Positions 1 to 5,398 of a stretch of 19,208 nucleotides of DNA are shown here, piece after piece. This DNA comes from Desulfovibrio sp. (GTDB lineage Bacteria > Desulfobacterota > Desulfovibrionia > Desulfovibrionales > Desulfovibrionaceae). The translations under genes and the position numbers were made by a program. Location: NCBI GenBank assembly GCA_003512875.1, contig DONZ01000027.1, forward strand, positions 1-19,208, in the 5' to 3' direction. Numbering within the stretch: the first letter of the stretch is position 1; every line of letters begins with the position of its first letter. A model generated the notes under the pieces. That model saw only the letters and a list, made by a program, of their open reading frames with translations, was not told the DNA's origin and ran no database searches.

Positions 1-22
1 CTGATTTAATCCTGCTAAAATC
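1..22 (+). CRISPR. Probable 3' end of the terminal CRISPR repeat (array continues left of the window)
   Basis: Bases 1-22 are the perfect reverse complement of 4886-4907, beside the cas9 start, as expected for a repeat and a tracrRNA anti-repeat. The match runs to the window edge, so the full repeat probably extends further left. Its 3' end, TGCTAAAAT (13-21), is an extended -10 box; II-C repeats of Neisseria and Campylobacter carry such a promoter in the same place. No second copy lies within the window at the usual spacing, so any array must lie to the left. The opposite reading (this is the anti-repeat and 4886-4921 is a lone repeat) cannot be excluded from the window alone. Confidence 0.6.
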
Positions 23-29
23 TGCTAAG

Positions 30-67
30 ATATTCCCTTGAAAATATTTACTTTTTCAAGGGAATAT
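30..67 (+). other. Perfect 15-bp inverted repeat in the cas1 leader
   Basis: Bases 30-44 (ATATTCCCTTGAAAA) pair perfectly with 53-67 across an 8-base loop. No T-run follows, so this is not by itself an intrinsic terminator. It lies just downstream of the terminal repeat and would be in any RNA started by the promoter in that repeat. The arm 30-40 also has a near-complementary alternative partner at 88-97 (one bulge), inside the loop of the next hairpin. Confidence 0.7.
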
Positions 68-73
68 GCTATT

Positions 74-129
74 AAAAACTCAAAAAGCAAGGGATATTTT
101 CTCCTGTTTTTTTGAGTTTTTTTATTTTT
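74..129 (+). terminator. Terminator-like hairpin just upstream of cas1
   Basis: Bases 74-86 (AAAAACTCAAAAA) pair with 109-121, giving a 13-bp AT-rich stem, and T-rich sequence continues to 129. The cas1 Shine-Dalgarno follows at 131. It could stop array transcription before cas1 or act as an attenuator. The stem has only two G-C pairs and a 22-base loop, so its efficiency is uncertain. Confidence 0.45.
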
Positions 130-140
130 GGGAGAGGGCT

Positions 141-1058
141 ATGGCAAGTCATATTTTAGAAATTGCGGAAAATAATCGTTATCTTTCAATCGCTCACGGG
201 AATGTTTGCGTAAAAGAGCAGGAAAAAATAATAGCGCGTATACCTCTTGATATGCTTGCTTGTGTGATGCTTACGGCACAAGGGGTGACGGTGAGCAAGA
301 CTTTTTTAATGAGCATGGGAGAGGCGAATATTCCTGTGCTTATTATGGGGAGCAATTATTTGCCCGTGTCCATGGCTTTGCCTGTGAGCTCGCATTATCG
401 GCATTTAATTGTTGCGCAGGAGCAGGTTAGGGCAGGCGAGGTGATAAAAAAACAGATATGGCAGAAAATAGTGATTGAAAAAATCCGTAATCAAGCCGAG
501 GCATTGGAAAAATGTGTTTTGCCCCATGACAGCGCTGTAAAAAAGCATGTTGAGAAGTTAAAATTCTTAGCGCAAAGGGTGCGTTCCGGGGATAAGGACA
601 ATAAAGAGGGACAGGCGGCTCAAATTTATTGGCAGGCTTTATTTGGAAGAGGATTTCTCCGTGATGTGGAAGAAGAGGGGATCAACTCTTTTTTGAATTA
701 TGGCTATGCCGTTGTGCGGGCGGTTTGTGCAAGGGCTTTATGCGCAAGCGGGCTTTTGCCGCTTTTTGGCGTTCATCACCATAACCAATTCAATGCGTTT
801 TGCCTTGCGGATGACATTATGGAGCCATTCCGTCCTTTTGTCGATTGTTTGGTTTATGAATATGTGCAAAAAAATGAAGTGCTTGTTCTGGATACGCAAG
901 CAAAGCGTTTTTTATCCTCAATTTTGCAGAACCCGTTTTATTTGCAGAAAGAGGAAAGCACTCTTTTGCCTCTTGTGTTGAAAGCCGCGCAGGGAATTTA
1001 TAAAAGTTATTGCGCCAAAGAGGTTCTTTTGGAATTTCCGCATTTAAAAGAGCAGTAA
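141..1058 (+). CDS. cas1: CRISPR-associated endonuclease/integrase Cas1 (type II)
   Basis: This 305-residue protein has the family's usual length. Cas1 forms a complex with Cas2 that integrates new spacers into the CRISPR array. The expected metal-binding residues are visible: E156 in EGQAAQIYW, H212 in GVHHHNQFN and E228 in DDIMEPFRP, matching the type II pattern. The N-terminal part (about 1-100) is the beta-rich domain and the rest is the helical catalytic domain. I chose ATG 141 because GGAGAGGG lies just upstream; the in-frame ATG at 66 falls inside a hairpin. The gene is on the strand opposite to cas2 and cas9, which is unusual, and its last 15 bases overlap the 3' end of cas2. Its promoter may be the extended -10 box in the terminal repeat. 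Confidence 0.96.
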   Translation: MASHILEIAENNRYLSIAHGNVCVKEQEKIIARIPLDMLACVMLTAQGVTVSKTFLMSMGEANIPVLIMGSNYLPVSMALPVSSHYRHLIVAQEQVRAGEVIKKQIWQKIVIEKIRNQAEALEKCVLPHDSAVKKHVEKLKFLAQRVRSGDKDNKEGQAAQIYWQALFGRGFLRDVEEEGINSFLNYGYAVVRAVCARALCASGLLPLFGVHHHNQFNAFCLADDIMEPFRPFVDCLVYEYVQKNEVLVLDTQAKRFLSSILQNPFYLQKEESTLLPLVLKAAQGIYKSYCAKEVLLEFPHLKEQ

Positions 1059-1409
1059 CTGCTGTATGGCTTGAAATTCTTGTTGTTCATTTCTCTTTTT
1101 CTTTTTTCCGAAAAAGTTTCTTGTCAGCCCGTACTGTCTGTCCGTGATGAAAAAGACGGAAACTTCGCCTTCTTCCAAAAGACAAAGTCCCACTTTTTCC
1201 GCCATGCGTTCCGCCGCAGCCATGTTTTCGCACGGCCGCAGATAAACAGAGAATTGCTTTCGGATAAAGCCGAGTTCGAGCAAATTGTTTCTGAACTGCG
1301 TCGCCTTTCGCATTTGTGTTTTTGTCAGCACCGGCAAATCGAACATGACCAATATCCACATGATCGTATACTCGGTGGGCTTTTGTATGTATTTATATTT
1401 TCTTGCCAT
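1044..1409 (-). CDS. cas2: CRISPR-associated protein Cas2
   Basis: This small protein (121 residues) has the Cas2 ferredoxin-like fold signature: a first strand MWILVMFDLPV with the conserved Asp at D24, then a GFIRKQFSVYLRP segment typical of type II Cas2. Cas2 is the structural partner of Cas1 in spacer integration. The start at 1409 overlaps the last 17 bases of cas9, suggesting translational coupling. A shorter start at the internal Met before WILV (1361) is possible but has no better ribosome site. The 3' end overlaps the convergent cas1 by 15 bases, so the last codons of both genes share DNA. The basic C-terminal stretch GKKKKRNEQQ is notable. Confidence 0.93.
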   Translation of the reverse strand: MARKYKYIQKPTEYTIMWILVMFDLPVLTKTQMRKATQFRNNLLELGFIRKQFSVYLRPCENMAAAERMAEKVGLCLLEEGEVSVFFITDRQYGLTRNFFGKKKKRNEQQEFQAIQQLLLF

Positions 1410-4400
1410 TCCATAATTTTTTATGTTTGCCGTTTATTTTTCCAAAGGGGCTGAGACTGACCTTGCGGGCTTGCAGTTCGCAGTAGGATTTTAGCCCTAA
1501 ACCACCGCTTGTCCAAAGGAGAAAGTTTTCAGGATGTTCTTTAAGGGCGTTTTTTGTTCCCGTTCTTGCATCGTATATGGACGTATAAACCATATAATTT
1601 TTACCAAAATCGTTTATTTTGGCAAGCATGGTATATTCCTGCTGTCCGTTTTTGCTGATTTTGCTGACAAACGCTTTTGGAACATTGTATTCTTGAAGCT
1701 GTTGCTCTGTGAAACGCAGTTCCAAAATATCGTCTTTGCAGACGCTCCAAATAAGCTTTGCGTTTTCTTGCTGCCAGCCGGGTTTAAAGTTCGGATTGGC
1801 GGCGTCAATGCTTTTTATGCATTCCCAGCCGATTTTTCCTTTTTGTTTGCCTTCGGTATGAACATAAAAATCAACATGGTGGTTGCTGTCCGGTTCATAG
1901 CCGCATTGCTGCTTTTCCCGGATATTGACAAGAGTGAATTTTTTCCCCACAGGATATTTTTTGCCGATATGGGCAAGACGTATGGCTTCCTGCACAAGGT
2001 TTTGTTCTGTCATGGCTGTTTCTTTAAGACCTTGCAGGCGGTTTTCGGCATTTTTTTCCATAAGGCTTTGTTCCGCCGCAAATTTTTGGGCATTGACCGC
2101 TTTTATGATTTCCGCGCATCGTTTGCGGATTTTTTGCACATCAGGGCTTGTGCCCAAATTTTCTGCAACAGCGATTTTTTCCAGTTTGCCGAAGCTGTCG
2201 ATATTTCCCAAAGAACGCATATAGGTTGCCGTATGGAGTCCTTTTTTCTCGTCATAATCTAAAATTCGGATGGCTGTTTCATTATGGAGCTGTGTATTGG
2301 TATCGTGCTCCGCTTTGTGGGAAATTCTGATTTCCTTGAGCGTTTCCAACACAAGTTCGCGGAAGCTTTTATGGTCCGGATTTTTAGGGGAAAGCCGGAA
2401 CGGCATGTTGATAATGCTTTCATCTATTTCTTTGCCCTGTTTTCTTGCTTTGTACATTTTAAGGGCGAGGGAACGGGTGACGGCGCAAAGCACCATGGCG
2501 TCAATGGCGTGGTGTCTGTGGTCGATGCGGGGCTTTTTTTCCCAGTCGCTGTTTTTGGATAAGTTGCCGTTTTCATCGCAATATACTTCGCCTGTTTCGT
2601 TATTGGTGAGGTATTTGGGAATATCCAGTCCCATGAGTTCGAACTCCATGCCGTCAAAACCCCACAAATGGCGGAGCTGCGCGGTCATGCCGCCGCGGAT
2701 TGCCAAAATATCGGGGCAAACGGCATGCAGGTACCGCAAAGCCGCTTTTGCCATGTAACGGGAATCCTGCAGGCGTCTGTCGGCATAATCTTCGTCTTTT
2801 TCGTCCCCTAAAAGAATGAAGCGGTCTTTTGCTTCGGCGGTGAAACGCCAAGCTTTGTTTTCAGGCAGTGTTTCCAAATGTTTTTTGATTGCCTCTTCAC
2901 GGTCCGCAAAATTTTGTCGGATAAAATCATAGGCAAACGTATCGCTTTTTACATTGTTAACCGTTGTCAGCACAAGATTGCAGAAAGAATTGGTCCCTCC
3001 TGCGGTCTGCGGAATGATATGGTCGATTTCATAAGCATTGAGGTCTGAAATTCTGAGGTTCGCCTGCGTATAAATATCTTTATAGCCTTGTTCTTTTAAC
3101 AGTTTATATTTTTTGCGGTTTTTGTCAGTGACCGCATAGCCGTTTTTCAGGAGTTCCTCGTCAATGATTTTATTGTATTTTTCATTGGCAAGGCGTTGTT
3201 TTTCCAATTTGTCACGCTTTTTTTTCGACATTCCGAAATCACGGGCGACTTCCAGTTTTATCATTTCCGGTTTGCCGTATAATCTGATGATTTCGTTGAT
3301 AACTTTACGCAGCTGATTGAGTATGGAATGGACGACAGGATTGGCTATGCGTCCGATTTTTTCTTCTTTTGCCGTTCTATCCAAATGCCATGGGTGTATG
3401 GGCAAAATTTCATCGTGCAGAATTTCTCCGTAATAGGGGAGTTCGTCATAACGCTTTTGCTCTTGGTTTTCCCGTGTGAAGCCGCAGGCTTTGACAGCTT
3501 CGTAATAGGTGGGAGCCTGCCAAATTCCATTTTCTTCATAACCTTCGATAAGTTTTTTCAAAATTTGTCTGCTTGCTTCTTTGCCCAGCATGGTTCTGTC
3601 TTTGGGCAGGCTGTTGAGGCAGGCGTAGAGTTTTCTTTCATCTTCGATTCCAGATAAATTCAATTTTTCCATGCAGATATGCAAAAAATCCTCTTCGTCG
3701 TAAAGCACGGGCTTAGCGGGGTTAGCTTTGGGATTGACGGGGTCTGCAATAAATTCCATAAGCCCGTCCTGCTCTTCTTCCGATAACTGCCAAAATGCGG
3801 GAATATCGGCAAAAGCTTTGATATGGGCAAAGGGCTTGATCGCTTTTATTTCTTCGTCTTCGGCATAAACATTGATACTGAGGATTTTTTCATCCGTGTA
3901 GGTTTGGAGCGTTTTTTTGATAAGGGTTTTATTCAGGCTTTCACCCTGCATGAGCATTGCAGCCAGTTTATCCCGCATTTCTCTGGTGAGTTTTTGGGTG
4001 GAATTTTCGGTTTTATAGCGTATGTTGTTGCATTGCTGATAGATTCGCAGCTGTTCCGCGAGCCTGTGCATTTTAGGCAGTCTGCCGCCGGTTTCGGGAA
4101 GCAGGGAACAAGGGGCGTTGGCATAAGGCGCCCTTGGGAAATCCATAAAAATGCAGTCATAAATTTTTTTGATTTGTTCGTCAGAAATGTTGAAATGCGG
4201 GGCTTGCCTGCTCATCAAGTCACGGTAATCCCGCTTTACAAGGTAGCGGGGCACAGAAAAAGGCACTTTATCCGCAATAAATTCTTTGCGTTGGCGTATG
4301 CAGCCGTTTTCTTGCAACTGCTTGTAAAGATACTCGGAAAGGGTTGTTTTTTCTTTGTTCAGGGCTTGCTCTAAGAGTTGATAGCGGTTGAGGCTCTTCT

Positions 4401-4833
4401 CTGATTTTTCTTCCTCGTCCGTTTCTTCAATAAAGCCCGCTCCGCGAAGTTTGGCGGTATGCATGATACAAAAGCCAAGTTCATGGGCGGAGTTTAAAGG
4501 CTCCTGCATGGCTTTTGCCCGCAAGGCATAGGGAGCGGAACGCAAACCGAGCTCAAGGTCGGATCGCTCTTTGGGCAGTAAATTATATTCCTGCAGTAAT
4601 TGTATCAGCTGTTTTTTACGGGCTTTTCTGTGTTTTTTGCTCTTGCGCTGGGAACGTAAAATACGGCGTTTTTCCGCACCCTCCGGGCAAGAACAGATAC
4701 GTACGCCTGCGTCCAATATTTTTTCATAGGAGTTGATGTCATTTAAATCTTTTGCTTCCGGAGCTATTTTGATAAGGGCTGTGCCTATGGAACTGATACC
4801 TAAATCTATGCCTAAGATATATCGTAATGCCAT
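1393..4833 (-). CDS. cas9: CRISPR-associated RNA-guided endonuclease Cas9 (type II-C-like)
   Basis: This 1146-residue protein is a two-nuclease effector that cuts DNA guided by crRNA and tracrRNA. Expected active-site residues are present: RuvC-I D10 (GIDLG), RuvC-II E528 (LEVARD), HNH H605 (EIDHIIPQ) with N627, and RuvC-III H775/D778 (HHAIDAMVL). An arginine/lysine-rich bridge helix covers about 55-75, a recognition lobe about 80-500, and the C-terminal WED/PAM-interacting region follows about 800. The start at 4833 is supported by AAGGA eight bases upstream and by Cas9 similarity beginning there; the in-frame ATG at 4923 would cross the anti-repeat. Length and the absence of csn2 or cas4 nearby point to II-C, although slightly long. 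It appears intact and catalytically competent. Confidence 0.97.
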   Translation of the reverse strand: MALRYILGIDLGISSIGTALIKIAPEAKDLNDINSYEKILDAGVRICSCPEGAEKRRILRSQRKSKKHRKARKKQLIQLLQEYNLLPKERSDLELGLRSAPYALRAKAMQEPLNSAHELGFCIMHTAKLRGAGFIEETDEEEKSEKSLNRYQLLEQALNKEKTTLSEYLYKQLQENGCIRQRKEFIADKVPFSVPRYLVKRDYRDLMSRQAPHFNISDEQIKKIYDCIFMDFPRAPYANAPCSLLPETGGRLPKMHRLAEQLRIYQQCNNIRYKTENSTQKLTREMRDKLAAMLMQGESLNKTLIKKTLQTYTDEKILSINVYAEDEEIKAIKPFAHIKAFADIPAFWQLSEEEQDGLMEFIADPVNPKANPAKPVLYDEEDFLHICMEKLNLSGIEDERKLYACLNSLPKDRTMLGKEASRQILKKLIEGYEENGIWQAPTYYEAVKACGFTRENQEQKRYDELPYYGEILHDEILPIHPWHLDRTAKEEKIGRIANPVVHSILNQLRKVINEIIRLYGKPEMIKLEVARDFGMSKKKRDKLEKQRLANEKYNKIIDEELLKNGYAVTDKNRKKYKLLKEQGYKDIYTQANLRISDLNAYEIDHIIPQTAGGTNSFCNLVLTTVNNVKSDTFAYDFIRQNFADREEAIKKHLETLPENKAWRFTAEAKDRFILLGDEKDEDYADRRLQDSRYMAKAALRYLHAVCPDILAIRGGMTAQLRHLWGFDGMEFELMGLDIPKYLTNNETGEVYCDENGNLSKNSDWEKKPRIDHRHHAIDAMVLCAVTRSLALKMYKARKQGKEIDESIINMPFRLSPKNPDHKSFRELVLETLKEIRISHKAEHDTNTQLHNETAIRILDYDEKKGLHTATYMRSLGNIDSFGKLEKIAVAENLGTSPDVQKIRKRCAEIIKAVNAQKFAAEQSLMEKNAENRLQGLKETAMTEQNLVQEAIRLAHIGKKYPVGKKFTLVNIREKQQCGYEPDSNHHVDFYVHTEGKQKGKIGWECIKSIDAANPNFKPGWQQENAKLIWSVCKDDILELRFTEQQLQEYNVPKAFVSKISKNGQQEYTMLAKINDFGKNYMVYTSIYDARTGTKNALKEHPENFLLWTSGGLGLKSYCELQARKVSLSPFGKINGKHKKLWNGKKI

Positions 4834-4843
4834 AAAATTTTCC

Positions 4844-4872
4844 TTGCTTTGTATCTGTTTTCTTGTTACAAA
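4844..4872 (+). promoter_or_regulatory. Predicted tracrRNA promoter
   Basis: TTGCTT (4844-4849), a 17-base spacer, then TACAAA (4867-4872) preceded by TGT form an extended -10 promoter. The predicted start near 4879 would place the RNA 5' end just before the anti-repeat. The promoter lies in the cas9 leader and faces the predicted cas9 promoter. Confidence 0.45.
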
Positions 4873-4886
4873 AAGTTGTCTGATTG

Positions 4887-4915
4887 ATTTTAGCAGGATT
4901 AAATCAGATAGGCAA
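4887..4915 (-). promoter_or_regulatory. Predicted cas9 promoter inside the anti-repeat
   Basis: On the minus strand, TTGCCT (4915-4910), a 17-base spacer and TAAAAT (4892-4887) preceded by TGC form a good extended -10 promoter. The predicted start near 4880 leaves a leader of about 47 bases before the cas9 ATG. The box is the same TGCTAAAAT found at the end of the terminal repeat. Confidence 0.5.
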
Positions 4916-4958
4916 TAAAACAAATGTAATTTTTTTTTAGAAATTACATGTAAAATTT

Positions 4959-4988
4959 AGAAAGTCCCCGAGGGGGCTTTCTTTTTTT
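4959..4988 (+). terminator. Intrinsic terminator of the predicted tracrRNA
   Basis: AGAAAGTCCCC (4959-4969) pairs with GGGGGCTTTCT (4972-4982), with one wobble pair, and is followed by a T-run to 4988. The T-run is present only in the plus direction, so a plus-strand transcript must come from the left, between cas9 and here. Confidence 0.85.
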
Positions 4989-5398
4989 ATGGTTTTGGGT
5001 GCTTTTTGATTTTCGGCGGATTGCTGCGGGGGTATTATCGCAGATTTTTATTTATGCGTTTTTTTTATGGATAGTTATTGATTTTTTTTTATCAGACCGC
5101 TTGACAATGAATGCGTTTTCGACAAAAATAAAGGTAAGGATAGTATTTTTTAGGAAAGACTTTTTGTTTTGCATGCACGGGCATGCGGAATGAAAGGCTT
5201 TTTCGGCGGTGTTTTTTGAACGCTTGTTTTTGAATGAGTTTGCCGTTTTCATATGCTTTTTGTTTCGAGTTTTATTCTTTGAAATATGAGATGGCGCAAA
5301 AAACAGTGCGGGATACTTTTCATGTTGCGGGGGAGCGTGTTTTTACACCTCGATATTTTTATTTTCAACATTTTTTATTTTCAGCAAAGGGCTATACC
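4989..5398. other. Intergenic region between tracrRNA and pap
   Basis: This AT-rich 410-base stretch has no convincing gene; the short open frames have neither ribosome sites nor recognisable products. It contains a possible plus-strand promoter (5101-5129) and a small inverted repeat, GCATGC-ACGG-GCATGC (5171-5186). The pap ribosome site AAAGG is at its end. Confidence 0.6.
5101..5129 (+). promoter_or_regulatory. Possible pap promoter
   Basis: TTGACA (5101-5106) is a perfect -35 box, followed after 17 bases by AAAAAT (5124-5129), a four-of-six -10 box. It would give a leader of about 260 bases before pap, unusually long for this window. Confidence 0.4.

What the first reader, a model, noticed from the sequence alone, without database searches (positions are those of the whole stretch)
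4844..4921. The anti-repeat doubles as the cas9 promoter and faces the tracrRNA promoter
Reading minus strand, TTGCCT-17-TGCTAAAAT inside the anti-repeat is a full extended -10 promoter for cas9. The predicted tracrRNA promoter (4844-4872) points the opposite way, so the two transcripts start within a few bases of each other and polymerases run through each other's promoter. This would link cas9 and tracrRNA levels by interference. It also suggests that the tracrRNA arose from an inverted repeat whose built-in promoter was captured by cas9. Autoregulation of cas9 through tracrRNA is known in S. pyogenes by another mechanism.
Basis: partly seen in the sequence, partly recalled or inferred. Interest (0 to 1): 0.8.

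Follow-up and report, generated by a model that had tools for sequence, protein, structure and literature searches.

The report
CRISPR repeat's promoter surviving inside tracrRNA
The gene for a CRISPR helper RNA still carries, on its opposite strand, the promoter built into every CRISPR repeat, and here it points at cas9 and may drive it; in nearly all the related systems compared that promoter is weaker or broken, so this looks like an unusual local arrangement rather than a general rule.

Summary
The sequence claim holds. Minus strand 4915-4887 reads TTGCCT-17-TGCTAAAAT inside the 35-nt anti-repeat (4887-4921) of a rightward tracrRNA. The anti-repeat is a nearly unchanged inverted copy of the CRISPR repeat, which carries the same promoter, as type II-C repeats are known to. 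It is the best cas9-strand site in 600 nt (7 of 300 shuffles reach its score). The opposing tracrRNA promoter (4844-4872) is weak here, better in two relatives. The -10 boxes are 14 bp apart and both predicted starts fall near 4880, so the two open complexes should exclude each other.

In 36 of 37 comparable loci the anti-repeat promoter scores below the repeat's; the tie is this species. An extended -10 in the repeat is kept in the anti-repeat in 2 of 16 loci; the bare TANNNT in 18 of 34. One unrelated planctomycete has a strong anti-repeat promoter. Selection against the promoter is not shown.

New lead: in 6 of 7 loci of this lineage the tracrRNA leader can pair with the anti-repeat and partly covaries with it, a possible self-masking hairpin. 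No transcripts were available; regulation by interference is untested.

The parts
1393..4833 (-). cas9 (1146 aa), ATG at 4833-4831
   Evidence: TIGR01865 406.6 bits against a cut-off of 100; Pfam RuvC_III and HNH_4
4841..4845 (-). probable Shine-Dalgarno of cas9 (AAGGA); overlaps the tracrRNA -35 by two bases on the other strand
   Evidence: read from sequence
4844..4872 (+). tracrRNA promoter TTGCTT-17-TACAAA with TG; weak here
   Evidence: counterparts TTGCTT-17-TATAAG (G039) and TTGCAA-17-TATAAA (G101)
4875..4916 (+). leader arm (4875-4890) complementary to the anti-repeat (4901-4916): predicted hairpin, -12.5 kcal/mol for 4871-4922; 4875-4879 lie upstream of the predicted start
   Evidence: with the start at 4880 a shorter stem remains; both-side changes in 6 of 10 pairs over 7 loci; matched against swapped leaders, 12 of 720 permutations as low
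4887..4921 (+). anti-repeat of tracrRNA; inverted copy of the CRISPR repeat with one deletion and one substitution
4887..4915 (-). repeat-derived promoter facing cas9, TTGCCT-17-TGCTAAAAT
   Evidence: identical in G039, -7T displaced in G101
4880..4990 (+). tracrRNA (start inferred)
   Evidence: fold -31.3 kcal/mol, z -5.3, 0 of 200 shuffles as low; anti-repeat, promoter and terminator on this strand
4959..4982 (+). intrinsic terminator of tracrRNA
   Evidence: stem changed but kept in G101 and D. cuneatus
1..22 (+). 3' part of a CRISPR repeat, the end of the array next to cas1; the contig begins here
66..1058 (+). cas1, transcribed towards cas2-cas9 (first in-frame ATG at 66; ATG at 141 with a good Shine-Dalgarno is likelier)
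   Evidence: TIGR03639 265 bits against a cut-off of 120; start read from sequence
1044..1409 (-). cas2
   Evidence: TIGR01573, PF09827

Best explanation
The tracrRNA gene contains a full-length inverted copy of a CRISPR repeat, so its opposite strand automatically carries the repeat's own crRNA promoter, aimed at cas9. In nearly all loci compared that promoter is weaker than in the repeat, while the pairing part of the anti-repeat is kept. In this species it is intact and is the best candidate for the cas9 promoter: transcription would start near 4880 and give a 47-nt leader. The tracrRNA promoter starts at the same place in the other direction, so one polymerase at a time can open this DNA, and cas9 and tracrRNA initiation should compete. 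Shown: the sequences, their likeness to the repeat, the geometry, the lack of conservation. Inferred: promoter activity, use by cas9, competition.
For: Repeat and anti-repeat share the promoter. It is the best cas9-strand site in 600 nt and rank 1 within 300 nt in G039. II-C repeats are known promoters (PMC3656092 and PMC4607530, passages). A divergent putative tracrRNA upstream of cas9 is described for Bordetella pseudohinzii (PMC4624362, passages) and predicted for Neisseria (PMC6199352, section 16). L250 has a strong anti-repeat promoter in an unrelated lineage.
Against: The sister species G101 lost the -7T and has a stronger cas9-strand site farther upstream (14.0 at -263). 36 of 37 loci have a weaker promoter in the anti-repeat than in the repeat, so selection to keep it is not seen outside this species. 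N. meningitidis has a described cas9 promoter with Fur and MisR sites (PMC13431127, passages); whether it lies in the anti-repeat could not be seen, as figures are not held. No RNA data. The matrix is recalled from E. coli and was not tested in Desulfovibrionaceae.
Confidence: 0.5

Rival explanations
1. By-product only: the promoter match persists because the anti-repeat was copied from, or must pair with, the repeat. It may fire weakly but has no role, and cas9 uses another start.
For: Positions 16-28 and 30-33 of the anti-repeat match the repeat in 24 to 28 of 28 loci whatever the promoter does; only 3 of 37 anti-repeats score 8 or more.
Against: In the window species the -7T at the end of the duplex and the TTG in the region of frequent mismatch are both kept, and no comparable site lies within 250 nt.
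Confidence: 0.3
2. cas9 is transcribed from a promoter beyond the tracrRNA terminator (upstream of 4990), giving a transcript antisense to the whole tracrRNA.
For: G101 has TATAAT at -263 scoring 14.0; the window has TTGAAA-17-TAAAAA at -506 scoring 9.6.
Against: In the window that site is weaker and far from cas9, and the stem of the tracrRNA terminator lies in between.
Confidence: 0.17
3. Selected regulatory switch: mutual exclusion of the two facing promoters holds cas9 and tracrRNA at a set ratio.
For: Both predicted starts fall near 4880 and the -10 boxes are 14 bp apart (sequence); face-to-face promoters are known to interfere (general knowledge, recalled).
Against: Not conserved in G101 of the same genus; the tracrRNA -10 differs even between window and G039.
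Confidence: 0.15
4. The antisense promoter is usually harmful to tracrRNA supply, and relatives disarm it; this species is a lineage that has not, or not yet. (Lowered from 0.3 after the re-run.)
For: Loss by three routes: -7T, TG to TA, T31 to A. G-to-A at the TG: 6 of 16 against 5 of 70 other G at positions 16-33, Fisher p 0.004.
Against: By lineage the TG test falls to 3 of 7 against 5 of 43, p 0.07. A test of whether the score drops more than random placement of the same mismatches gave p 0.03 on 10 hand-picked loci but p 0.14 on 17 chosen by rule, 10 of 17 above the null mean. The bare TANNNT is kept in 18 of 34. Structure can explain losses at the bulge and at the duplex end; in two co-directional controls the anti-repeat also fails at its first base or bases.
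Confidence: 0.2

Closest known systems
Repeat-embedded crRNA promoters of type II-C (Campylobacter jejuni, Neisseria meningitidis)
   Same: A -10 box at the 3' end of each 36-nt repeat
   Different: Here the same promoter sits, intact, in the anti-repeat of tracrRNA and faces cas9
tracrRNA encoded divergently upstream of cas9 (Bordetella pseudohinzii; predicted for N. meningitidis)
   Same: Position and orientation of tracrRNA relative to cas9
   Different: The passages seen do not describe a cas9 promoter within the anti-repeat
tracr-L autoregulation, S. pyogenes type II-A
   Same: A tracrRNA locus that affects, or could affect, cas expression; a 5' extension pairing with the anti-repeat (that detail of tracr-L is recalled)
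   Different: tracr-L guides Cas9 to the cas promoter; here the predicted start leaves no guide and no 12-mer target was found in the window
Leader-repeat hairpins that block extraneous crRNA (type VI, PMC13187072, abstract)
   Same: A leader RNA masking a CRISPR-pairing element
   Different: Here the leader would mask the anti-repeat of tracrRNA, by prediction only

Membership tests
type II-C CRISPR-Cas | cas9, cas1, cas2 without csn2 or cas4 | tested here: inconclusive
   cas9, cas1, cas2 found; only five window ORFs were scanned and the array side runs off the contig
type II-C CRISPR-Cas | 36-nt repeat with -10 at its 3' end | tested here: met
type II-C CRISPR-Cas | Cas9 falls in the II-C clade | not tested
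   no tree was built; TIGR01865 hit only
type II tracrRNA | anti-repeat, own promoter, terminator on one strand | tested here: met
   (promoter weak in the window genome)
cas9 promoter in the anti-repeat | cas9 transcript starts about 7 nt from the anti-repeat -10 | not testable with these tools
   no RNA data
cas9 promoter in the anti-repeat | co-conservation of promoter and anti-repeat in relatives | tested here: not met
   kept in the same species; weaker in G101, D. cuneatus, G193
tracr-L type autoregulation | guide upstream of the repeat mimic with a target in the cas promoter | tested here: not met
   predicted start leaves no guide; no 12-mer match in the window; shorter matches were not sought

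The most novel reading that the evidence does not exclude
In this Desulfovibrionaceae lineage the tracrRNA gene is a two-way control element: an intact repeat promoter in the anti-repeat fires cas9 and excludes tracrRNA initiation at the same start point, while the tracrRNA leader folds over the anti-repeat as a repeat mimic so that only a true crRNA repeat can displace it.
Probability: 0.15. Interest if true: 0.75.

Novelty: new variant of a known kind. Interest (0 to 1): 0.45.

Why it matters
If the anti-repeat drives cas9, one short stretch of DNA would serve as repeat complement, tracrRNA 5' end and cas9 promoter, and would show how an array repeat can be turned into a regulated gene pair. 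The comparison matters either way: a repeat with a built-in promoter, copied in reverse beside cas9, brings an antisense promoter into the tracrRNA gene, and in 36 of 37 loci it scores below the repeat's. The leader hairpin, if real, would be a self-masked tracrRNA, which bears on how tracrRNA avoids pairing with other cellular RNAs.

Tried and rejected
Rfam at gathering threshold found nothing in the window. A tracr-L-like guide model was considered: no matching target 12-mer in the window and no start far enough upstream. Phage contigs were scanned for an exact 21-nt piece of the repeat to look for decoys: none. Of 122 Bacillota genomes with a Cas9 match I fetched 20, chosen by Cas9 length; none gave an anti-repeat facing cas9 (4 had no array in the stretch, 1 a contig edge). 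Of the Actinomycetota 3 were fetched: two have the match in the other orientation and one no array; the Acidothermus locus was used.

Rows dropped: 103 Cas9 stretches were fetched (7, 20 in 38, 10 in 39, 16 in 59, 20 in 79, 16 in 80, 9 in 49-57, 5 in 88-92); 37 entered the table. The rest had no array in the stretch, no usable anti-repeat match, tracrRNA in another orientation, a contig edge, or were the window genome's own copy of a used locus (L105). Of the 14 named loci those not re-fetched through a genome were not examined. Dropped rows whose anti-repeat end can be read: L069 TGCTAAAGA, L070 TGCTAAAAA, L025 and L106 TGCTACAAA (no -7T), but L165 keeps TACACT like its kin. L109, L110, L114, L118 and L119 match the repeat over 11-16 nt of its 5' half only. 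L139 and L143 in the table are poorly aligned at the 3' end. The lineage groups were assigned by eye from repeat likeness, not from a tree. An earlier count said 15 loci with an extended -10; the output shows 14 (16). The random-placement test used 10 loci picked by hand; repeated by rule on 17 of 37 it lost significance.

Literature searches for a cas9 promoter in the anti-repeat: (83 and 104 for related points); the passages I saw do not describe it. Zhang et al. 2013 is not held, so its Neisseria start sites were not seen.

Full report
What is there. The window is contig C235 of a 245-contig genome of 1.73 Mb, 80% complete. The window holds cas1 (+), cas2 (-) and cas9 (-, ATG at 4833). Most of the array lies off the contig; a repeat is read from contig C179: GTTTTACTTGCCTGTCTGATTTAATCCTGCTAAAAT, 36 nt with 30-nt spacers. 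In the same-species genome G039 the array lies on the cas1 side with the same repeat.

The tracrRNA. On the plus strand, upstream of cas9, lie a promoter (4844-4872), an anti-repeat (4887-4921) and a terminator (4959-4982). The anti-repeat is the inverted repeat with one deleted base and one substitution. The terminator stem is changed but kept in G101 and D. cuneatus, and the promoter is better in G039 and G101 than here, so the strand is well supported. The predicted RNA 4880-4990 folds at -31.3 kcal/mol, z -5.3.

The promoter in the anti-repeat. Because the repeat contains TTGCCT-17-TGCTAAAAT, so does the opposite strand of the anti-repeat, pointing at cas9. Repeat promoters at this place are established for type II-C: C. 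jejuni crRNAs start from individual promoters in the repeats (PMC3656092, passages), and a survey of II-C repeats placed the -10 at the 3' end (PMC4607530, passages). With a recalled E. coli sigma-70 matrix the anti-repeat site scores 12.8, equal to the repeat, and is the best of the cas9 strand over 600 nt; 7 of 300 shuffles reach it. By the usual spacing both transcripts would start near 4880, and the two -10 boxes are 14 bp apart. Two open complexes could not coexist there, so exclusion at initiation is likelier than collision (inference).

Is it conserved? I collected loci in which the anti-repeat lies upstream of cas9 with the repeat sense reading towards cas9, from Desulfovibrionaceae and other Desulfobacterota, Acidobacteriota (58), Planctomycetota (77), Acidothermus (29) and plasmids (48, 85). 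37 of 103 fetched stretches could be scored. The anti-repeat promoter was weaker than the repeat's in 36 and equal in 1, this species. The repeat has a full TGNTANNNT in 16 loci; the anti-repeat keeps it in 2, this species and a Pigmentibacter plasmid whose -35 TTG reads AAG. The bare TANNNT fares better: 34 repeats have it and 18 anti-repeats keep it, many of them Acidobacteriota and Planctomycetota loci with TACACT and no TG. Anti-repeat scores of 8 or more: 3 of 37 (this species 12.8, planctomycete L250 11.5, sister species G101 9.1). In G101, Cas9 68% identical, an extra A displaces the -7T; D. cuneatus and G193 also lack it. Rows are related to each other, so the p value of the paired test is not to be read literally, and a mutation in a good promoter mostly lowers its score.

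Why is it weaker elsewhere? Over 28 loci, matches to the repeat are fewest at position 1 (8 of 28), 7 (14), 9-10 (13 and 11), which hold the -35 TTG, and 36 (13), the -7T; position 29, the G of the extended -10, has 20, while 16-28 and 30-33 have 24 to 28. The -35 coincides with a region of frequent mismatch and the -7T with the end of the RNA duplex, so structure alone may explain them. At position 29, G-to-A keeps a G-U pair but removes the TG: 6 of 16 against 5 of 70 other G, p 0.004, but 3 of 7 against 5 of 43 by lineage, p 0.07. Random placement of the same mismatches gave a combined p of 0.03 over 10 loci picked by hand, but 0.14 over the 17 of 37 that pass a fixed rule, with the drop above the null mean in 10 of 17. 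In two loci where tracrRNA runs with cas9 the match also stops short of the anti-repeat's first base or bases. Selection against the antisense promoter is therefore possible but not shown.

An unexpected feature. In the window species, G039, G101, G193, L029 and G246 the leader just upstream of the anti-repeat is complementary to it, giving hairpins of -10 to -13 kcal/mol (z -1.0 to -3.9, G246 the weakest); D. cuneatus is weak (-6.6, z -0.7) and two loci of the genus's second Cas9 system lack it. On an alignment of 7 sequences, 6 of 10 pairs change on both sides in some sequence and 82.9% of cells pair, against 52.9% or less when slid; 4 of 500 shuffles reach the covariation score and 13 of 500 the percentage paired, but the number of further pair types is ordinary (209 of 500). 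Two of the 7 rows are nearly identical, and 3 of the 10 pairs lie upstream of the predicted start. Summed over loci, leaders fold better with their own anti-repeat than with swapped ones: 12 of 720 permutations as low, 1 of 120 or 6 of 120 after dropping one of two near-identical rows; singly, only 3 of 6 leaders have their own as the best or tied partner. In this lineage the best tracrRNA -10 lies 14-23 nt from the anti-repeat in the 4 loci measured, against 4-10 nt in 20 of the 25 others, which leaves room for a transcribed leader. The leader may mask the anti-repeat until a crRNA displaces it. Related ideas in print are the leader-repeat hairpin of type VI systems (PMC13187072, abstract) and tracr-L of S. 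pyogenes (PMC11417352, passages); the first acts on crRNA, the second needs a guide that is not seen here.

Verdict. Regulation by interference is untested, and capture of the promoter by cas9 is not borne out as a general rule.

Noticed in passing
window 4875-4916 +: tracrRNA leader complementary to the anti-repeat, partly covarying in relatives: possible self-masked tracrRNA.
   Followed up: partly
L105 (G000:C4) and L104 (G039): The same species has a second Cas9 locus with repeat GTTATAGTTGCCTTTCCAATTTAGACATGCTAAAAT; its anti-repeat -10 is degraded (TAATAAATA).
   Followed up: partly
window 1-1409: cas1 is on the opposite strand to cas2 and cas9, next to the array end; the last repeat's promoter points at cas1, with inverted repeats and a T-run in between (read; genes).
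   Followed up: no
window 4867-4872 against L021: Between the window genome and same-species G039 the stretch from the anti-repeat to the cas9 ATG differs at two bases, both in the tracrRNA -10 (TACAAA here, TATAAG there).
   Followed up: no
   Followed up: partly
survey repeats, positions 8-14 and 31-36: In many of the 37 repeats a TTG of -35 type lies 16-17 nt before the 3' -10, so a whole promoter fits inside the repeat in several phyla.
   Followed up: partly
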